In this document: positions 3,723-63,984 of the stretch, piece by piece
Layout: the number at the start of each line of letters is the position of its first letter
How positions within the stretch are numbered: the first letter of the stretch is position 1
Notes under the pieces: generated by a model
Told to the model about the DNA's origin: nothing
Databases searched by the model: none
Seen by the model: the letters and a program-made list of their open reading frames with translations, nothing else
Translations under genes and position numbers: made by a program
Origin: Chitinophaga chungangae
GTDB taxonomy: Bacteria > Bacteroidota > Bacteroidia > Chitinophagales > Chitinophagaceae
Reading direction: 5' to 3'
Assembly: GCF_017742215.1 (NCBI RefSeq)
Contig: NZ_JAGHKP010000003.1
Coordinates: 678,308-742,307 of the forward strand
DNA: 64,000 bases

Positions 3723-6700
3723 ATGAATAGTATTACAAAATCGTCTTTTGTACCCCGTCACGTGCATATGCGGGGAGTTAATTACAGATACCTGATAAGA
3801 ATGGCGGCCACGGCTTTTGTATTCTTGTGGTGTGTCAATTGCGTGAATGCGGCAGTCTATCAAAACGGAAAGGTTTCGCTCAATGTGGAAAACATTTCTT
3901 TAAAGGAGGTGCTTAAAAAAATAGAGGACCAAACGAGCTATCTTTTTATCTATTCAAAAGATATAGACGTAACCGGCAAGGTATCGTTACATGTGCAGAA
4001 TGAAGATATGACCAACGTGCTGAATTCCCTGCTTTCGCCCCAGGGACTGACCCATAAGATCGAAGGGAAGCATATCATTATAAAAGGAAATCCGGCGGCC
4101 CCGCAGCGCCAGGCTCCCAGAACGCTGCGTGGAAGGGTAATAGATTCCAAAACCCAGAAACCCGTCCAGGGCGCCACCGTTGGCATCCTGGGGACCACTT
4201 CGGGCACCACGACCGATAGCGATGGTTTTTACCAGCTGCGTACCGAACTGAAAGAGTGCGTGCTTGTAATAAGTCATATTGAATATAGTAACCTGCAAAT
4301 AAGGGTTAACGCAAACGAAAACATATACGATGCAATCCTTGTTCAGAAAGAGACCGCACTGAACGAAACGGTTGTTGTCGGCTATGGCACGCAGCGTAAA
4401 ATAAGTAATATAGGTGCGCAGTCTTCCCTGAAAGCGAGCGATTTGAAAATCCCGTCCTCTAACCTCACAGGAGCGCTGGCGGGAAGGATTTCAGGCGTAA
4501 TTTCCGTGCAGCGTTCCGGGGAGCCGGGTAAAAATGTCGCCGATATCTGGATCAGGGGGATTGCCACACCCAACAGCGCTTCACCGCTCATTCTTGTTGA
4601 CGGTGTAGAGCGGTCTTTCAATGATGTGGACCCCGAAGACGTTGAATCGCTCACCATACTAAAAGACGCTTCTGCGACCGCTGTTTACGGGGTGCGCGGC
4701 GCGAACGGCGTTATTATCGTCAAAACCAAACCGGGCAGGATGGGAAAACCCACTATCAATGCCGATTATTACGAATCATTTACCCGGTTTACAAAAAAAG
4801 TGGACCTGACGGATGGCATAGCATATATGAATGCGGCTAACGAAGCTTTGCGTAACGACGGGCTGGCGCCAAAATATTCCCAGGAGTATATTAATAATAC
4901 GGCGCTGGGAAAAGACCCTTACCTGTACCCGAATGTAAACTGGCTGAAAGAAGTATTCAACGATTGGGGGTATAACAGGAGAGCAAACGTAAACGTTCGC
5001 GGGGGAAGCGAGAAAGCCGTTTATTATGCTTCGGTAAGTTATTATAACGAAACCGGCATGATGACCACGGATAAAACAGTGACCGGTTATAACTCCAAGA
5101 TGAAATACAGCCGTTATAACTTTACCACCAACGTGTCTATCAACGCTACGCCGACTACTAAAGTGGAGATTGGCGCGCAGGGGTATTTAGGTGAAGGGAA
5201 CTACCCGGCCATTTCATCGCATGATGTTTACAACTCCGCCATGGGCATTTCACCGGTCGATTATCCTAAAATGTTTTATATAAGGGGAAAGGGTTATGTT
5301 CCCGGTATCAATCCCAACGGAGGATTCAGAAACCCTTATGCGGACGCTACCCGCAGAGGCTACGATAACATCGCGAAAAACCAGGTCTATTCCAACCTCA
5401 GAGTTACGCAGGACCTGGAAGCTTTTACAAAGGGGCTCAGCTTTTCAGCGATGTATGCCTACGACGTGTACAACGAAGTGAACCTGCACCAGTCCCGCCG
5501 CGAATCCACTTATTATCTCACAGACCTGAACGTTCCTTATGATATGGACGGGTACCCGATCCTGACCCGGACCTACACCGGTTCCGATGTATTGGGATAC
5601 AGCCAGTCGGCATCCGGAAATAAAAGAACGTATCTCGAAGCGTCTTTCAATTACGACAGGTCGTTCGGTGAGCACCGTGTGAGCGGATTATTGCTTTTTA
5701 ATCAGCAGCAAAGATTGCTCTATCCGCAGGGCACGCTTGAAAACGCCATCCCGTACAGGATGCAGGGCGTTGCCGGGCGTGCGACCTACTCCTGGAAGGA
5801 CCGTTATTTCGCCGAGTTCAATATCGGCTATACCGGCGCGGAAAACTTCTCTCCCAGGAAAAGATACGGCACATTCCCCGCTTATGGTGTGGGATGGGTG
5901 ATATCCAATGAAAAGTTCTGGGAGCCTTTGCATAATATCATTCCGTTCCTGAAATTCCGGTATACGGATGGAAGGATCGGGAACAGCAATGTTTCAGACA
6001 GGCGCTTTATGTACCTGGATCAGATCAACGGCAACGGTTCTTTCGGATATGTTTTTGGCGTAAGCGGTACCAAATACGGCGGCTACGAAGTGATCAACAA
6101 TGCGGTTGACCTCGTGTGGGAAGAATCCCGCAAGCAGGACCTGGGTATCGAGCTGAGGACACTCAACGGCGACCTGTCCATCATCTTCGACATCTTCAGG
6201 GAAAAACGTAAGAACATCCTGCTGAAACGTGAAAACTCCATTCCGTCTTTTATCGGGTATAATATGGCTTCACCATACGGTAACGTAGGAGTCGTGGAGA
6301 ACAGGGGATTTGACGGAACGATAGAATACAACAGGCGACTTAGCGATAACTGGAGGATCAACCTGAGAGGAAACATCACTTACAACAACGATCAGTGGAT
6401 CAAAGGAGAATTGCCCGATCAGCGTTATTCATGGATGAACCAGTTTGGGGAGAAGATACTCGGGCAGCGGGGATATATCGCAGAAGGATTGTTCACACAG
6501 TCGCAGATCGATGATATGGCGCGCTGGCAGCAACTTTCAGGCGAAGATAAGATAACGACGCCCAAGCCGTTTGCTACCCAGTTCGGCACCGTAAAAGCAG
6601 GAGATATCCGTTATAAGGATCTGAACAACGATGGTCAGATAGACGCCTATGATAAAACTTACATCAGCCGCGGCGATGTTCCGGCATTCGTATACGGCTT

Positions 6701-55829: not shown

Positions 55830-57821
55830 ATGATGAAACTACGAATGCTTTTGATTGTATGCCTGGCGGTAATTTCCGCAGGAGTTTCCGCGCAGTCGGT
55901 GCGCGAGGTGGACATCTGCGTCTACGGCGGTTCTTCAGCCGGCGTGATCGCAGCTTACACCGCGAAAAAACTCAATAAAACGGTGTTGCTGATCGAGCCG
56001 GGCAAACGCCTGGGCGGCCTTACTTCCGGTGGCCTGGGGTATACCGATATCGGGAACAAATACGCCATCACCGGCATTTCCCGCGATTTTTACCGCCGTA
56101 TCGGCACGCATTACGGCAAGTTTGAACAGTGGATATTCGAACCGGGCGTTGCAGAGCGCACTTTCCAGCAATACATCCGCGAAGCGGGCGTGGAAGTGCT
56201 GTACATGCACCGGCTGGCCGGCGCGCAGAAATCCAACGGCCGCATCACCGAGATCCAATTGGAGGCTTCGGCCGGCGGCACCGCCAAAACGTCGGTGGTA
56301 CGCGCGAAAATGTTTATTGATTGCAGCTACGAGGGAGACCTGATGGCGAAAGCCGGCGTTTCGTATACCGTTGGCCGCGAAGCCAATGCGCAATACAACG
56401 AAACCTACAATGGCGTGCAGATGCGCAACAAACACCAGTTCCCCGACGGCATAGACCCGTATAAAATACCTGGCAAGCCCGAAAGCGGCCTGGTATGGGG
56501 CATCAGCAGCGAAAAACTCGCACCGCAGGGAGCGGGCGACAAAAAAGTGCAGGCCTACAATTTCAGGATATGCCTCAGCAACCAGCCGGACAACATGATC
56601 CCCATCACGCAGCCGGAAGGGTACGATCCCGCGCGTTACGAATTATTGATACGCGTGGTGGAGAAGTTGAAACCCGGTAATCTCAACGGTTTCCTCAAGT
56701 TCGACCTCATGCCCAACCACAAAACGGACATCAACAACAACGGAGCGTTCTCCACGGACATGATCGGCATGAACTACAATTATCCCGAAGCCGATTACGC
56801 AACCCGCGAAAAGATCACGAAAGAACACGAACTGTACAATAAAGGCCTGCTGTATTTCATCGGTCACGACCCGCGCATGCCGAAACACCTGCGCGACGCA
56901 ATGCTGAAATGGGGCTATCCGAAAGATGAATACCCCGAATCCGGCAACTGGAGCCCGCAGATGTACGTGCGTGAAGCGCGCCGCATGGTGGGCAGTTACG
57001 TGATGACGCAGGCCAACTGCGAAGGCCGTGAAGTGGTGAAAGACGGCGTGGGCATGGCGGCGTATACCATGGATTCGCATAACTGCCAGCGCATTGTGGA
57101 GAATGGTATGGTGAAAAACGAAGGCGACGTGCAGATCGGCGGTTTCGGACCTTACCCGATCAGCTACCGTTCGCTGATCCCGAAACAGGAAGACTGCGAG
57201 AACCTGCTGGTGCCGGTTTGTCTTTCCGCTTCGCATATTGCTTACGGCTCCATCCGCATGGAACCGGTGTTTATGGTGCTGGCGCAATCTTCCGCCACCG
57301 CGGCGGCAGCGGCCATCGACCATAAAACTTCCGTGCAGAAAGTAGATGTCGCCAAATTGCAGCAGCAACTGGCGGCCCGCCCGCTGGCGACCGACCGCAC
57401 CGCCGAGATCCTCGTAGATAACGACGATGTAGCGAACACCACGACAAACGGAACCTGGAAAACCGAAAAAAGAGGCGCATACGGCCCCAGTTTGTTCGTT
57501 GCCGAAAAAGGGCAATCCGCTACGATCCGTTTTACGCCTGACGTATTGAAAACCGGTACTTACAAGGTGTACACCTATGTGCCGAAAGTGGCGAATATTT
57601 CATCCACCACGCACATCAGCGTGTTCGACGGTAAAAAGGAATCGAAAGTGCCGTACACCGCGGCGTCCGTTCGCGTGCAGGGACAAACTTCCGGCGAATG
57701 GGTGGAACTGGGCAGCTACGCATTTTCAAAAGGTAAAAAGGCATACGTGGAAATCACCAGCGATGGGGCAGATGGCGCTACTGTGGCGGATGCCGTGTTG
57801 TTCATTCCCGTGGAAAAATAG
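55830..57821 (+). CDS. FAD-dependent oxidoreductase with golvesin-like C-terminal domain
   Basis: 663 residues: signal peptide (ending GVSAQS, about 22); FAD-binding Rossmann start VDICVYGGSSAGVIAAYTAKK (about 27-47); FAD-interacting GGLTSGGLGYTD and DCSYEGDLMAKAGV motifs; and a C-terminal beta domain (about 530-663, ILVDNDDVANTTTNGTWKTEKRG) resembling golvesin/xanthan-lyase CBD domains. It acts in the periplasm or outside. The substrate is unknown, but oxidoreductases of this type occur in PULs handling sugar acids or glycosides. It is 12 nt after susD, the last gene of PUL 3. Confidence 0.87.
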   Translation: MMKLRMLLIVCLAVISAGVSAQSVREVDICVYGGSSAGVIAAYTAKKLNKTVLLIEPGKRLGGLTSGGLGYTDIGNKYAITGISRDFYRRIGTHYGKFEQWIFEPGVAERTFQQYIREAGVEVLYMHRLAGAQKSNGRITEIQLEASAGGTAKTSVVRAKMFIDCSYEGDLMAKAGVSYTVGREANAQYNETYNGVQMRNKHQFPDGIDPYKIPGKPESGLVWGISSEKLAPQGAGDKKVQAYNFRICLSNQPDNMIPITQPEGYDPARYELLIRVVEKLKPGNLNGFLKFDLMPNHKTDINNNGAFSTDMIGMNYNYPEADYATREKITKEHELYNKGLLYFIGHDPRMPKHLRDAMLKWGYPKDEYPESGNWSPQMYVREARRMVGSYVMTQANCEGREVVKDGVGMAAYTMDSHNCQRIVENGMVKNEGDVQIGGFGPYPISYRSLIPKQEDCENLLVPVCLSASHIAYGSIRMEPVFMVLAQSSATAAAAAIDHKTSVQKVDVAKLQQQLAARPLATDRTAEILVDNDDVANTTTNGTWKTEKRGAYGPSLFVAEKGQSATIRFTPDVLKTGTYKVYTYVPKVANISSTTHISVFDGKKESKVPYTAASVRVQGQTSGEWVELGSYAFSKGKKAYVEITSDGADGATVADAVLFIPVEK

Positions 57822-57893: not shown

Positions 57894-58652
57894 TTACGGC
57901 TTTACACCTTCCAGCCAGGCCTTAAAATCGTTGACCCGTTCCCGGCTGATGATCACATCTTCGCCCGCGGCCGGCTCCAGCTGCAGGATGAGGCGGCTGT
58001 TGTAATACGCCATGATCTTTTTGATCGCGTCGATATGAATGATGAACTGGCGGTTGATGCGGAAAAACGTGTGTTTGTCCAGCAGCTTCTCGACCTGGTC
58101 CAGCGAATAATCCAGCGGCATGCGCTGCTGCGCGAAGGTGGTGGCCCAGGTAACGCCTTTGGAAAATTGCAGCCAGGCGATGTCTTTCGCTTTTACGTAA
58201 ATCAGTTGATTGTTGATGCGGCCGATGAAACGGGTATGGTCGCGGCGGAGAAATTCTTCCGCCAGGCGGTTGATATCTACCTGGTAATTGGGCGCGGGAC
58301 GGAACTGTTCGAATTTTTGCAATGCGTTGCACAATTCTTTCTGCTCGATCGGTTTCATGAGATAATCGATGCTGTTGAGCTTAAACGCCTGCAGGGCGAA
58401 ACCGTCGTACGCCGTGGTGAAGATCACCGGCGTGTGCACTTTGGTGTGGGCGAACATTTCGAAGCAGTTCCCGTCAGACAACTGGATGTCCATGAACATC
58501 AGGTCCACGGGATGTTGTTCCGCCAGCCATTGCACGCCCTGCGCAACGGATTCGATGATGGCAAGCACTTCCACGTCCGGGTTGCACTGGCGGATCAGCT
58601 GGATCAGCCGCTCGGCGTTATGCATTTCGTCTTCAAATATTACCACTTTCAT
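57894..58652 (-). CDS. LytTR-type response regulator
   Basis: 252 residues: receiver domain (about 1-115; acidic pair Glu7-Asp8, phospho-acceptor Asp55 in LMFMDIQLSDG, Lys100 in LMKPIE) and a C-terminal LytTR DNA-binding domain (about 140-250, FIGRINNQLIYVKAKDIAWLQ...FFRINRQFIIHIDAIKKI). It works with the LytS-type kinase encoded immediately upstream; the start overlaps the kinase stop by 4 nt. It is the last gene of the five-gene operon. Confidence 0.93.
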   Translation of the reverse strand: MKVVIFEDEMHNAERLIQLIRQCNPDVEVLAIIESVAQGVQWLAEQHPVDLMFMDIQLSDGNCFEMFAHTKVHTPVIFTTAYDGFALQAFKLNSIDYLMKPIEQKELCNALQKFEQFRPAPNYQVDINRLAEEFLRRDHTRFIGRINNQLIYVKAKDIAWLQFSKGVTWATTFAQQRMPLDYSLDQVEKLLDKHTFFRINRQFIIHIDAIKKIMAYYNSRLILQLEPAAGEDVIISRERVNDFKAWLEGVKP

Positions 58653-59731
58653 GATTGCAGGATAACCGGAATTTTAACAATGAACAGATCGTAAGAAGGA
58701 TATACGCGGATGCCTTTCCCGATGGCGAGCTCGTATCTTTTATGGATATTCTCCAATCCAATGCCGGAGGGCGTTTCAGGATTGCTTCTCGCCCGTACTT
58801 TGTTGGATATCACCAGTTCGTCGCCTTCGCTTTTGATGGTGATCAGCAGCGGGTCGTTCGACGAAAAACGGTTGTGTTTGATGGCGTTTTCCACCAGCAG
58901 CTGCAAGGTGGCGGGCGGTATCATCCCTTTCACCCGGATATTTTCGCCGATCTCCACCGAACAGCGGATGCTGCTCTGGTGGCGGATGCGGATGAGGAAA
59001 AGGTATGAATCCAGGAAGTCGAGCTCGGTTTGCACCGGCACGAGGTTCTCGAATTTTTTATCGAGGATGTAGCGGTAGGTTTTGGCGAGCTGCGTGATGT
59101 AATCCGCCGCTACATCAGGGCTTTTATACACCAGGTTGGTAAGCACGCTGAGCGAATTGAAGAAAAAATGCGGGTCTATCTGGTTGCGTAGCGCGTCGTA
59201 TTTCGCCTGGATATTTTCGCGCATCAGCCTTTCCGTTTGCAGCTGGTATTCTTTCCAGCCTTTGTAATAATAAATGATGCCGTTGAAGGTGAGGATGAGC
59301 AAATAGAAAAGGAATGTGCCGAAATTCAGGTCGTAGCTGAAGCTGCTGGCGCTTTCCCAGGCTTCGTAGCGGTGGAAAAGTAAAATGTCGAATGCCGCGT
59401 ATACCAGACCGAACCCGATGGAAGCGACCGCGCCGTAAGCCAGCAGGCTGAGCGCGAGGATAACGAGCTTTTTCGGCCCCGTGTGCCGCTCCACCCAGCC
59501 GGAAAGCCGGATGGCGCCTTCCCATACGATCAGCCCGTACACAACGTACACGACGCTGAAAAGCTGGCCCCGCATGCCCCACACGCGCATGTCTTCAACA
59601 AACGTATGGTCGAACAGCTTGAAGATCGTGCTAAGGATATAGAGGATCACTATCCTCGAAAGATAACGGAAAAGCTTGCTGGTAAAGAGTTTGTCGTGCT
59701 GCTGAAAATCCATGTCGGTAGTTCGCTTCAT
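58649..59731 (-). CDS. LytS-type sensor histidine kinase
   Basis: 360 residues from ATG 59731; upstream in-frame sequence lies inside the epimerase gene. About four membrane helices (25-40, 55-70, 88-118 and 138-155) precede the His-kinase domain, with phospho-acceptor His188 in LRNQIDPHFFFNSL and a C-terminal ATPase (LLVENAIKHN, GIGLENIHKRY). The ATG shares one base with the epimerase TAA (TAATG), and its own stop overlaps the next gene. The signal it senses is unknown; a membrane lipid or product of the upstream enzymes is possible (inference). Confidence 0.92.
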   Translation of the reverse strand: MKRTTDMDFQQHDKLFTSKLFRYLSRIVILYILSTIFKLFDHTFVEDMRVWGMRGQLFSVVYVVYGLIVWEGAIRLSGWVERHTGPKKLVILALSLLAYGAVASIGFGLVYAAFDILLFHRYEAWESASSFSYDLNFGTFLFYLLILTFNGIIYYYKGWKEYQLQTERLMRENIQAKYDALRNQIDPHFFFNSLSVLTNLVYKSPDVAADYITQLAKTYRYILDKKFENLVPVQTELDFLDSYLFLIRIRHQSSIRCSVEIGENIRVKGMIPPATLQLLVENAIKHNRFSSNDPLLITIKSEGDELVISNKVRARSNPETPSGIGLENIHKRYELAIGKGIRVYPSYDLFIVKIPVILQS

Positions 59732-60717
59732 TAAAAATATGCATTTTCCCTGAACCAGCGGAACGCTTCGTGCACGGCGGTTTCTATGGGCGTGTATTGC
59801 AATTGCAGGTCGCGTTCCGATTTGCGGCCGGTGTAATAGTTCTGCAAGCACAACAGGTAAGCGGAAGTATAGTTCAGCTTCGGCGACCGGCCGGTAAGCC
59901 GGGCCAGCGCGGAACCGGCTATCCCGGCGATCTTCAGGAACAGCGGCGGTATCGGGATCAGCAGCGTTTTGCGGTGCTGGGCGCGGTCTACCATCCTGAA
60001 AAATTCCCGGTAGCTCAGGTTTTGCCCCGCCAGCAGGTAACAGTCGCCGGTTTTGCCTTTCCCGATCGCGTTCACGATGCCACGGCACACATCCTGTATA
60101 TGTACGAAATTTTTTCCGCCAGGCGGGTAAAACAACACGCTTTTGCCCACGCCGTACAGCAGCAGTTTGCCCGAACTGGGTTTCACATCGTTCGGCCCGA
60201 TCATGAAGGTGGGGTTCACGACCACGGCGGGCAGCGCGGCGCGCTCCACGTGCTCCAGCACGTATTGCTGCGCGAGGTATTTGCTGTTGATATATCCTGA
60301 ATTGGCGTTAAACAACGAAAAGCCGTTCAGTTCGCTGCCGGGGTTGCTTTTGCTGCCGGGACCGATGGTGTTGGCGGTGCTGACATAAATGAGTTTTTTC
60401 ACTTTATGCTGCAAACACGCCGCCACGATGTGGCGGGTGCCGGTGAAATTTATCTTTTCATATTCTTCGAATGAAACGCCCCACTGGTCTGTAATGCAGG
60501 CGGCATGTACCACCACGTCGCAGCTTTCCACGGCCTGCATTACCTGTGTGGCATCGTTGAGATGGCCGGAGAAGATCTCGCAGGGAATGTCTGCAATGGC
60601 TTTCAGATCGGCGGTTGGGCGTACCAGTATTTTTATTTCATAGCCGAGGCGGTACATTTCCCGGGTAAGATTGGAGCCGAGGAAGCCGTTGGCGCCTGTG
60701 ATCAACACTTTGGTCAT
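59731..60717 (-). CDS. NAD(P)-dependent epimerase/dehydratase
   Basis: 328 residues, an extended short-chain dehydrogenase: NAD-binding GANGFLGSN at 8-16, catalytic Ser/Tyr/Lys (VSTANT; GYINSKYLAQ with Tyr and Lys four apart), and a C-terminal substrate part (about 180-328, TGRSPKLNYTSAYLLCLQNYYTGRKSERDL). It resembles 3-beta-HSD/dihydroflavonol-reductase-like enzymes rather than sugar-nucleotide epimerases (by eye). It is third of five overlapping genes. Confidence 0.87.
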   Translation of the reverse strand: MTKVLITGANGFLGSNLTREMYRLGYEIKILVRPTADLKAIADIPCEIFSGHLNDATQVMQAVESCDVVVHAACITDQWGVSFEEYEKINFTGTRHIVAACLQHKVKKLIYVSTANTIGPGSKSNPGSELNGFSLFNANSGYINSKYLAQQYVLEHVERAALPAVVVNPTFMIGPNDVKPSSGKLLLYGVGKSVLFYPPGGKNFVHIQDVCRGIVNAIGKGKTGDCYLLAGQNLSYREFFRMVDRAQHRKTLLIPIPPLFLKIAGIAGSALARLTGRSPKLNYTSAYLLCLQNYYTGRKSERDLQLQYTPIETAVHEAFRWFRENAYF

Positions 60718-61502
60718 ATCGAATAACTGATTTCTTTTTTTACCTCCCGCGACACGAGTTTCATTTTAAACCCGGTGGGCAGCAGCTGCATGAGAAAATG
60801 GCTGATCCTGTTCATGATGCCGGGAATGATCACCGGGGAGCCCGCCAGCGTCATCCGGATGGCCTTTTGCGCGATCTCCGGCGTGGGCAGCAGGCCCATT
60901 TTGCCTTTCAGGCCCTGGCTGATGATCCTGCGCGCAGTGCCGGAATTGGTCAGTATCGGTCCGGGATACACCACGCTTACGGAAATGCCGGTGCCTTCGA
61001 GTTCTTCCTTCAACCCCAGCGAAAATACCGAAATAAAGGCTTTGGAAGCCGGGTATACCGTTTTGTACGCGATGGGCGTAAAAGCGGCCATGCTGGAGAT
61101 GTTCATGATATAACTTTTGTCGTGCCGCAGCAGGTGCGGGATCAGCTGGCGCGTGAGAAGGGCCGTGCTGCGCACGTTGAGCAGGATGATCCTGTCGATC
61201 TTTTCCAGCGGCGTTTCCGTGATCGCTTCGGTGCCGCCGATGCCCGCGTTGTTGATCAGGAAATCGACAGGGTAGCAGCGGATGATCTCATTGACGCGCT
61301 TTTCAAGTTCCGCGGCATCCGTAAGATCGAATTCGAACACCTGCACGTCTACTGCATATTCATCCATCAATTGACCGGCAAGGGACGCTGTGTTGCCGCC
61401 CGGCAGCGCAATGAGGATGATGTGCATCCCCATGCGGGCGCACTGTATGGCGAATTCCCGGCCGAGGCCCGAGCTGGCGCCGGTGATGAGCGTGTATTTC
61501 AT
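60714..61502 (-). CDS. Short-chain dehydrogenase/reductase (SDR)
   Basis: 262 residues; cofactor motif TGASSGLGREFA (7-18), NNAG (about 85-88), active-site Ser/Tyr/Lys (NISSMAAF; YPASKAF), and a C-terminal hydrophobic region (PVIIPGIMNRISHFLMQLLPTGFKMKLVSREVKKE), which suggests membrane association or a lipid-like substrate. The cofactor is likely NADP(H). It overlaps both neighbours by 4 nt. Confidence 0.9.
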   Translation of the reverse strand: MKYTLITGASSGLGREFAIQCARMGMHIILIALPGGNTASLAGQLMDEYAVDVQVFEFDLTDAAELEKRVNEIIRCYPVDFLINNAGIGGTEAITETPLEKIDRIILLNVRSTALLTRQLIPHLLRHDKSYIMNISSMAAFTPIAYKTVYPASKAFISVFSLGLKEELEGTGISVSVVYPGPILTNSGTARRIISQGLKGKMGLLPTPEIAQKAIRMTLAGSPVIIPGIMNRISHFLMQLLPTGFKMKLVSREVKKEISYSI

Positions 61503-62110
61503 TGTTCTGCGAGTGTTTTGAAGCGTGTCATGGTTTTAATGAGATTGTTGTGCACGATCGGGTCGGAAACCCAGCGCGGGATCTTGCGGCTGCGGTCGGT
61601 GGTGATGAAATAGGTCACTTTTACGTTCCCCGAATGCATATTTTCCAGCACCCATTTGCCTTTGGTGCCGGTAAGCCGCATAATGCCGTCTTTTTCCGGG
61701 AAGGCGCTGTGGCGCGTGCTTTGAAAGGTTACTTCGCTCTCGCTGCTTTGGAATGAGAGGCAGCAGTCCTGGTTATCGAAAGGCCAGGGAATGTCGTATT
61801 GAATATAACTGATCCAGCGGTTTCCTTCCGGCAGCGGCAGCACGCGGTATTCTTTGGCGTTCACGTTCCAGTCGCGGCCTTTCACCGGGTCTTTCAGCAG
61901 GCTGATCAGGCTGTTTCGGCTGGCCCTGACGAGGAACACGGCTTTGATCTCCCTCACTTTTTCGTCGTTGCCGGCGGCGATCCAGCGTTCGTACAGGAAT
62001 ACGTTATTGGATTGTTTCACGAATTTAAAATCCTCCGCCGGTAATTTCCCGGCAAACAGTGGCTGGATAAAGACCGCGCTCATGATGACAATAATTATGA
62101 TGCTTTTCAT
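61499..62110 (-). CDS. Exported START-domain protein
   Basis: 203 residues with a signal peptide (ending PLFAGKL, about 21) and a START-like lipid-binding fold: KFVKQSNNVFLYERWI, EIKAVFLVRASRNSLISLLKDPVKGRDW, SYIQYDIPWPFDNQDCCLSF, TGTKGKWVLEN. START domains bind sterols, phospholipids or related lipids. It is the first gene of the operon, so the whole group may act on a lipid (inference). The stop overlaps the SDR start by 4 nt. Confidence 0.83.
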   Translation of the reverse strand: MKSIIIIVIMSAVFIQPLFAGKLPAEDFKFVKQSNNVFLYERWIAAGNDEKVREIKAVFLVRASRNSLISLLKDPVKGRDWNVNAKEYRVLPLPEGNRWISYIQYDIPWPFDNQDCCLSFQSSESEVTFQSTRHSAFPEKDGIMRLTGTKGKWVLENMHSGNVKVTYFITTDRSRKIPRWVSDPIVHNNLIKTMTRFKTLAEQ

Positions 62111-62215
62111 GCTTTGGCATTTGAAGCAAAATTGCGCGGAAGAGCGCCCCCGGCCATGGAATTTTCGTTGAACTGTAGCGTGGAGGGGTTGAGTTGTTGG
62201 TTTTGGAGGGAATTA

Positions 62216-63294: not shown

Positions 63295-63873
63295 TTACTT
63301 TATTTTCCTGAAAGTAATATTGATGCGCGCGCCGATCGGCCTGGCTGTTTTCGGCAGCGCATGCTGCCAGTAATGCTGCGTTTCGCCGCCCATGATCAGT
63401 AAGCTGCCGTGCGTTAACAACACGGCGCGTTTTACGGAGCGGTTCATGTAGTGCCTGAACTGGAAAACCCGCTCAGCCCCGAAACTTACCGAACCGATCA
63501 CGGGATTGATGCCCAGCGAGCTTTCATTGTCGCGGTGCCAGCCCATGCTGTCCTGCCCATTGCGGTAAAAATTCAGCAAGGCGCTGTTGAAATCCTGACC
63601 GGCCGCGGCTTCCACTTTTGATTTGATGGCAAGTAATTCCTCCGTCCAGCGAAGGGGCTGCATGGTAATACCGGAATAGCTGTACGTTTTGCCTTCGTCT
63701 CCATACCAGGCCGTGAGCCTTGGCTGCATCACGGTTTTACCGAACAGGATCACGGGTTCCTGTTTCCAGTTTATATTTTCCTTCAACAATTGAAAATAGC
63801 CGTCGCTTTCTTCCGGGGTGAACAGTGCCGGGAATAACACCGCCATGCCGTCTGCCGGTAACAGGTTGTTCAT
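63295..63873 (-). CDS. AlkB-like 2-oxoglutarate/Fe(II) dioxygenase
   Basis: 192 residues from ATG 63873 (a second in-frame ATG at 63909 lies upstream). The Fe(II) ligands are His113 and Asp115 (GWHRDNES) and His171 (HYWQH), with 2-oxoglutarate-binding Arg183 and Arg189 in RINITFR. The substrate-site region YSGITMQPLRWTEELLAI and the MGGETQHYWQHALPKT block are typical of the ALKBH2/3-like bacterial enzymes, which repair alkylated bases in DNA or RNA. It is a lone gene. Confidence 0.9.
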   Translation of the reverse strand: MNNLLPADGMAVLFPALFTPEESDGYFQLLKENINWKQEPVILFGKTVMQPRLTAWYGDEGKTYSYSGITMQPLRWTEELLAIKSKVEAAAGQDFNSALLNFYRNGQDSMGWHRDNESSLGINPVIGSVSFGAERVFQFRHYMNRSVKRAVLLTHGSLLIMGGETQHYWQHALPKTARPIGARINITFRKIK

Positions 63874-63984
63874 ATACACAAAGATACGGGCAGCGCCGGT
63901 TTGCGCCATCCGTATCTTGCGATGTATGGAACGACCGGCACAAAACCGCGGTTATTTGTTAATTTCGCCCAAAATTTCAAGACA

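What the first reader, a model, noticed from the sequence alone, without database searches (positions are those of the whole stretch)
57894..62110. Five overlapping genes linking a START protein, SDR, epimerase and LytS/LytTR pair
Every junction overlaps by 1-4 nt (START/SDR 4, SDR/epimerase 4, epimerase/kinase 1, kinase/regulator 4). Tying a lipid-binding exported protein, two dehydrogenases and a two-component system in one translationally coupled unit suggests a small lipid-modifying system with a built-in sensor. I know of no described system of this exact make-up.
Basis: inference. Interest (0 to 1): 0.65.

Follow-up and report, generated by a model that had tools for sequence, protein, structure and literature searches.

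The report
Self-regulated START lipid-modification regulon in Chitinophaga
Five neighbouring genes for a lipid carrier, two lipid-type reductases and a membrane sensor with its switch belong to one gene set, often joined by a ceramide-type hydroxylase, that is kept under the same DNA switch site even when evolution splits the genes apart, which points to an undescribed, self-regulated way of remodelling membrane lipids in Bacteroidota.

Summary
In detail: START, SDR, epimerase-like (EPI), LytS-type kinase (HK) and LytTR regulator (RR) genes overlap by 4, 4, 1 and 4 nt at 57894-62110. The order is not strain-specific: SDR-EPI-HK-RR is collinear in 45 of 80 named loci, from Chitinophaga to Pedobacter, Niabella and Prolixibacter. 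In the genus, START and EPI orthologues occur in the same 38 of 79 genomes.

Two new facts. (1) A tandem site, ACRRYTCA-N13-ACRRYTCR, at fixed distance from a Bacteroidota promoter, stands before the operon or its parts in 38 of 38 system genomes; 4 of 41 others have a match, at 2-3 mismatches. In 15 of 15 genomes where START has left the core, both parts keep the site. Its geometry is that of published LytTR sites. (2) A second Scs7-type ceramide/fatty-acid hydroxylase occurs in 31 of 38 system and 0 of 41 other genomes, fused to START in 9. The window's genome lacks it.

Best reading: a lipid-remodelling regulon under positive autoregulation by an intramembrane sensor. Co-regulation is well supported by sequence; the lipid and both reductase reactions are inferred. 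No hopene/oxidosqualene cyclase match in this genome.

The parts
61499..62110 (-). START-domain protein, 203 aa, signal-peptide-like N-terminus (judged by eye; no predictor run); periplasmic lipid carrier (inferred)
   Evidence: Pfam START 21.7 bits, cut-off 22; PDB 3qsz E 4e-8; model pLDDT 88.9, Z 21.1 to 3qsz, 17-18.5 to CERT START
60714..61502 (-). classical SDR, 262 aa; best NCBIfam profile mycolate reductase (under its cut-off)
   Evidence: TGxxxGxG, NNAG, Y150 and K154 conserved in at least 97% of 98 locus sequences (some loci twice)
59731..60717 (-). extended SDR, 328 aa, HpnA/OleD-like carbonyl reductase or epimerase-type enzyme
   Evidence: Y142 and K146 at least 97% conserved in 113 locus sequences (some loci twice)
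58649..59731 (-). LytS-type histidine kinase, 360 aa, about four N-terminal membrane helices, no sizeable outer domain, H188 box
   Evidence: His_kinase; hydropathy; D41, R54, W70, W125 and H188 at least 97% conserved (75 sequences)
57894..58652 (-). LytTR response regulator, 252 aa
   Evidence: Response_reg plus LytTR
62127..62197 (-). predicted LytTR site and promoter: repeats ACAACTCA (62190-62197) and ACAGTTCA (62169-62176), 21-bp period; -7 box CAATTTTG (62127-62134), 16 nt before the START ATG
   Evidence: 0 mismatches, G000:C8:740434-740504

Best explanation
The five genes are the core of an autoregulated lipid-modification regulon of Bacteroidota. The membrane-embedded LytS-type kinase senses a state of the inner membrane and phosphorylates the LytTR regulator. 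The regulator binds two direct repeats just upstream of the -33 region and activates the operon, including its own gene (positive feedback), and wherever the parts are separated also the START gene and, in many species, the second hydroxylase gene. The enzymes work on an acyl lipid, most likely of the ceramide/sphingolipid (or sulfonolipid) type. Where present, the Scs7-type enzyme hydroxylates the acyl chain; the classical SDR and the HpnA/OleD-like extended SDR carry out carbonyl/hydroxyl redox steps; the exported START protein binds the lipid and carries it from the inner membrane. In the window's own genome, which has only the housekeeping hydroxylase, the hydroxylated substrate would come from that enzyme. 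SHOWN by sequence: gene set, order, co-occurrence, fusion, shared promoter site; the START fold by a confident model. INFERRED: which regulator uses the site, direction of regulation, signal, substrate, both redox reactions, transport.
For: Order conserved: SDR-EPI-HK-RR in 45 of 80 loci. START and EPI in the same 38 of 79 genus genomes, orthologues of both absent from the other 41. START detached from EPI in 15 of the 38. Promoter site within 3 mismatches in 38 of 38 system genomes and 4 of 41 others; the reversed pattern hits 2 of 79 genomes; chance expectation about 0.05 per 7-Mb genome. The site stands before both halves in 15 of 15 detached genomes, and before 10 of 18 second hydroxylase copies lying outside the operon. 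A TTTG-like -7 element lies 37-38 nt after the second repeat in all but one (cut short) of the fronts listed. Geometry matches LytTR sites: 9-bp repeats, 12-bp spacer, about 10 bp before -35 (passages of PMC6193735 and PMC2714321). The site also precedes the operon in Pedobacter (8 of 8 loci, 2-3 mismatches), with 0 reversed-pattern hits in the 865,647 bases of 65 loci. Second hydroxylase in 31 of 38 versus 0 of 41; its only PDB hits are Scs7 ceramide hydroxylase, E 2e-27. In the 40-genome tree the apparent losses are nested, and START, EPI and second hydroxylase are missing together there.
Against: The second hydroxylase is absent from the window's own genome and four other system genomes, so it is not essential; 8 of 18 copies outside the operon show no site at up to 3 mismatches. 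No enzyme passes an NCBIfam cut-off for a lipid enzyme. The system follows the species tree (6 changes), so the 38/79 co-occurrence rests on few independent events. Outside the genus the site is patchy: Niabella matches only at 4 mismatches (3 of 4 loci); Terrimonas (L132) and START-SDR-EPI loci L119/L120 have none; of 41 more distant loci (L138-L178) only L167 has a match, at 4 mismatches. In Pedobacter the first gene is not START. The pattern was built from part of the same promoters, and some system genomes match only at 2 mismatches. Ten further matches in system genomes are unexplained. Nothing shows that this RR binds the site.
Confidence: 0.6

Rival explanations
1. The genes are a co-regulated unit but the substrate is not a membrane lipid: SDR and EPI make or detoxify a small hydrophobic compound (aldehyde, polyketide or pigment precursor) and START is its binding protein or a cyclase-like enzyme.
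For: EPI's best PDB hit is a putative oxidoreductase, 3wj7; START-like folds include polyketide aromatase/cyclases (Z about 13).
Against: Nearest START matches are lipid-transfer proteins (Z 17-21). Fusion and co-occurrence with an Scs7-type hydroxylase. No polyketide-synthase domain was seen in the limited set of neighbours scanned with Pfam.
Confidence: 0.2
2. It is a hopanoid or sterol pathway: EPI is HpnA/SdmB and START a sterol carrier.
For: HpnA and SdmB are EPI's top two NCBIfam hits; StAR-type folds match START.
Against: Both score below cut-off (233.7 of 367.65; 146.4 of 600). No PF13243 cyclase match in this genome; of the 11 system genomes among the 36 searched only G021 has matches over the cut-off, partial ones.
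Confidence: 0.05
3. Ordinary operon inheritance: five genes kept together by descent, the promoter site being a general promoter feature of the genus and not a specific regulator site.
For: Presence is largely vertical; overlapping genes are common in bacteria (recalled).
Against: 37 of 41 genomes without the system have no match to the site and 4 have one at 2-3 mismatches. The site follows detached START, core and many hydroxylase genes. It has the LytTR 21-bp period, and gap 13 scores best in most fronts.
Confidence: 0.12

Closest known systems
LytTR regulators with tandem-repeat promoters (PlnC/D; LytTR Regulatory Systems of Streptococcus mutans)
   Same: 9-bp direct repeats 12 bp apart (21-bp period), close upstream of the -35 (here -33) region, in front of the regulator's own operon (PMC6193735, PMC2714321, passages).
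   Different: Here a receiver-bearing RR with a LytS-type kinase, a Bacteroidota -33/-7 promoter, and targets that look like lipid genes instead of bacteriocin genes; the repeat reads ACRRYTCA.
Bacterial START protein of Xanthomonas (3qsz)
   Same: Fold, Z 21.1 over 172 residues.
   Different: 21% identity; here probably exported, in an operon, and in 9 genomes fused to a hydroxylase.
Yeast Scs7 / FA2H ceramide fatty-acid hydroxylase
   Same: Second hydroxylase matches Scs7 over 194 residues, E 2e-27; histidine motifs conserved in 12 sequences.
   Different: No cytochrome b5 part in the piece searched (its presence in Scs7 is recalled); fused to START or under the LytTR site; absent from the window's genome.
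HpnA hopanoid-associated epimerase, OleD, mycolate reductase
   Same: Among the closest curated profiles of EPI (HpnA, OleD) and SDR (mycolate reductase).
   Different: All below cut-off; no cyclase match in the genome; olefin and mycolate genes were not searched for.

Membership tests
START domain (PF01852) | Pfam gathering score | tested here: not met
   21.7 versus 22 bits
START domain (PF01852) | START fold | tested here: met
   AF2 pLDDT 88.9; Z 21.1 to 3qsz, 19.6 to StarD4, 18.5 to CERT
START domain (PF01852) | binds or transfers lipid | not testable with these tools
   needs purified protein
LytS/LytTR two-component system | His_kinase, receiver and LytTR domains above cut-off | tested here: met
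   74.7/25.2, 51.1/30.2 and 63.8/22.6 bits
LytS/LytTR two-component system | tandem direct-repeat site at the target promoter | tested here: met
LytS/LytTR two-component system | regulator binds the site | not testable with these tools
   EMSA or ChIP needed
LytTR Regulatory System (LRS) | LytTR regulator paired with a membrane inhibitor instead of a kinase | tested here: not met
   kinase and receiver domain present; definition from PMC6193735 abstract and passages
HpnA (TIGR03466) | curated cut-off | tested here: not met
   233.7 versus 367.65 bits
HpnA (TIGR03466) | hopene cyclase in the genome | tested here: not met
   no PF13243 match in G000
SdmB sterol demethylase protein | curated cut-off | tested here: not met
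   146.4 versus 600 bits
Mycolate reductase (NF040690) | curated cut-off | tested here: not met
   120.6 versus 380 bits
FA_hydroxylase PF04116 / Scs7 (regulon member elsewhere) | Pfam cut-off and Scs7 similarity | tested here: met
   71.9 versus 31 bits; Scs7 E 2e-27
Sphingolipid pathway | serine palmitoyltransferase in the genome | not tested

The most novel reading that the evidence does not exclude
An intramembrane kinase senses the hydroxylation or packing state of sphingolipid-type lipids and, through a LytTR positive-feedback switch, turns on a complete remodelling line (Scs7-type hydroxylation, two-step redox or stereo-inversion of a lipid hydroxyl, and export on a periplasmic START carrier). 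In some species hydroxylase and carrier are one polypeptide: a bacterial counterpart of ceramide hydroxylation coupled to START-based transport.
Probability: 0.25. Interest if true: 0.82.

Novelty: new variant of a known kind. Interest (0 to 1): 0.6.

Why it matters
Functions of bacterial START proteins and of LytTR systems in Bacteroidota are poorly known (recalled). This gives a concrete regulon with a defined DNA site, natural gene fusions and natural absences, so the lipid, the sensor signal and the regulator site can each be tested directly, in harmless soil bacteria.

Tried and rejected
Hopanoid/sterol reading: rejected for this genome, no PF13243 cyclase match.

Translational coupling as the key feature: only the HK-RR overlap is constant, 28 of 28 genomes examined.

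New regulon members in the window's genome: a second site match, G000:C1:1834805 (2 mismatches), lies at the start of a long frame without Pfam hit, and the similar G003 match faces other genes; treated as chance. The pair G025/G079 (2 mismatches) lies near frames without Pfam hits; unexplained. The other six unexplained matches in system genomes (3 mismatches) and the five in genomes without the system were not looked at further.

3-ketocapnine reductase as SDR's function: the paper found (PMC11211663; abstract start in the listing and a word search of its main text, whose only passage was a reference) gave me no sequence to compare; left open.

Neighbours of more distant EPI relatives: an EPI-SDR-fatty-acid-desaturase order in a Lewinella MAG, otherwise no common theme in the ten proteins scanned.

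Print: no description of this gene set turned up in the ten paper searches; only listings, the starts of abstracts, and word-search passages of PMC6193735, PMC2714321, PMC9723704 and PMC11211663 were seen. This is not proof of absence.

Full report
WHAT IS THERE. The five genes are present at the stated coordinates and overlap by 4, 4, 1 and 4 nt. Pfam names START (just under cut-off), classical SDR, Epimerase/3Beta_HSD, His_kinase, and Response_reg plus LytTR. The genus is Chitinophaga by inference: the nearest genome, G003, has an EPI contig of 836,805 bases, the length of a named Chitinophaga barathri record that also holds an 87% identical EPI.

CONSERVATION. In 79 genus genomes, EPI orthologues (E at most 1e-100) occur in 38 and START orthologues (E at most 1e-30) in the same 38; more distant START homologues (about 20-28% identical) exist in genomes without the system. 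HK was searched in 59 relatives and is adjacent to EPI, by coordinates, in all 17 genus genomes with EPI there. Of 80 named loci found with EPI (the best 80 of 291 were kept), 45 have SDR-EPI-HK-RR in line and 29 have START up to about 600 nt before SDR; the rest are partial loci or more distant EPI relatives. Named genera with the four-gene core include Chitinophaga, Niastella (a MAG), Pseudoflavitalea, Paraflavitalea, Terrimonas, Niabella and Pedobacter, and Prolixibacter and Maribellus at 37-46% identity. In Bacteroidales-type loci a DUF2062 membrane protein stands between START and SDR (10 loci of one BLAST cluster; Pfam run on two) or is fused to SDR (4 loci: L139, L143, L161, L176; Pfam run on L161, the others by sequence likeness). 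In 396 genomes sampled from the order, START matches at E 1e-27 or better outside the genus came from four genomes of the same family.

START CAN LEAVE. In 15 of 38 genomes START lies on another contig or more than 100 kb from EPI (coordinates). In 9 of these it is fused to the C-terminus of a fatty-acid hydroxylase. Pfam sees both domains in L044, START again just under cut-off; five fusions were read through, and four are inferred from adjoining matches in one open frame. The START signal-like stretch remains inside the fusion. G072 has a second START copy.

A SIXTH MEMBER. All 79 genus genomes match a hydroxylase of this family. A second copy at 60% identity or more is present in 31 of 38 system genomes and 0 of 41 others, where further copies are at most 44% identical (counted by hand; G082's two rows are pieces of one gene). 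It is fused in 9, within or next to the operon in 4 (G020, G060, G072, G101), and elsewhere in 18. G021 has a broken remnant, G092 (65% complete) only fragments, and G000, G003, G012, G030 and G033 have none. Its only PDB matches at E 0.1 are Scs7 ceramide very-long-chain fatty-acid hydroxylase (E 2e-27).

THE SITE. I cut out 87 upstream stretches and read those of loci below L100; a direct repeat of period 21 stood out. Of 67 distinct stretches, 52 score at least 13 of 16 against ACARYTCA-N13-ACARYTCA, with mean 13.6 versus 10.4 in dinucleotide shuffles; the consensus was chosen from these same stretches. A TTTG-like element lies 37 or 38 nt after the second repeat. In 36 collapsed sites the core letters are nearly invariant, and elements near -33 (T-G/T-G-C) and -7 (CANWTTTG) mark a Bacteroidota promoter; TAnnTTTG as the -7 box is from PMC9723704, passages. 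The 71-nt pattern with up to 3 mismatches hits 42 of 79 genomes: 38 of 38 with the system (0 to 3 mismatches) and 4 of 41 without (2 or 3 mismatches); the reversed pattern hits 2. In every system genome at least one match lies before START, the fusion, an operon-leading hydroxylase or the core, by coordinates. In all 15 detached genomes both halves carry it. Ten of 18 outlying second hydroxylases carry it; six of the other eight were examined and have none at up to 4 mismatches, and two were not fetched. Ten further matches in system genomes, seven at 3 and three at 2 mismatches, are unexplained. Beyond the genus (65 loci) it stands before the Pedobacter operon (8 of 8 loci, 2-3 mismatches), before Pseudoflavitalea and related cores (L118, L121, L124, L126, L131), before detached START in two of three other genera of the family, and weakly (4 mismatches) in 3 of 4 Niabella loci; it is missing in Terrimonas and, but for one 4-mismatch case, in the 41 more distant loci. 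Reversed-pattern hits were 0 in 865,647 bases. Published LytTR sites have 9-bp repeats with 12-bp spacers about 10 bp before -35, the same geometry.

HISTORY. A tree of 11 syntenic proteins (2,819 columns) from 40 of the 79 genomes (20 with, 20 without, chosen by me; midpoint root) needs 6 changes for presence (500 shuffles: minimum 8, mean 13.6). So inheritance is mainly vertical, with apparent losses nested in system clades (G006+G077; G016+G017+G022+G023; G027; G083). START, EPI and the second hydroxylase are all absent in those genomes; G027, G077 and G083 have site matches at 2-3 mismatches whose surroundings I did not examine. Some support values in the tree are low.

HOW IT LIKELY WORKS. 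The kinase has about four membrane helices and no large outer domain, with conserved D41, R54, W70 and W125, which suggests that it senses the membrane itself (inference). The position of the site next to -33 fits activation and, because HK-RR are in the operon, positive feedback (inference). SDR and EPI keep their catalytic Y-K pairs (the roles are recalled) and resemble enzymes on long-chain keto lipids (mycolate reductase, OleD; all under cut-off). The START model is closest to lipid-transfer proteins, CERT among them, but START folds do not reveal the ligand. Together with the Scs7-type partner this favours a ceramide-like lipid; that step is a hypothesis.

VERDICT. Component families are known; this combination with its site was not found in the ten paper searches made.

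Noticed in passing
55830-57821 (+): FAD-dependent oxidoreductase with a golvesin C-terminal domain, convergent with the operon.
   Followed up: no
63295-63909 (-): 2OG-Fe(II) oxygenase of AlkB type upstream of the operon.
   Followed up: no
L122, L123, L125, L127-L130, L136, just before SDR: In Pedobacter the first gene under the site is a small protein family in START's place; one of two tested members is DUF6904-like.
   Followed up: partly
L161 5703-6998; L176 5682-7001; L139; L143: DUF2062 membrane domain fused to the SDR in Bacteroidales-type loci.
   Followed up: partly
L226 about 4639-4970 (G021): A broken second-hydroxylase remnant still stands next to a site match.
   Followed up: no
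L211 5953-6023 and L212 6141-6211: Site match shared by G025 and G079 near frames without Pfam hits; possible clade-specific target.
   Followed up: partly
L158 6977-10004 (Lewinella MAG): EPI relative followed by an SDR and a fatty-acid desaturase.
   Followed up: no
G072:C1:4384466-4385068 (no locus): Second START copy, 45% identical to the window's, away from the operon.
   Followed up: no
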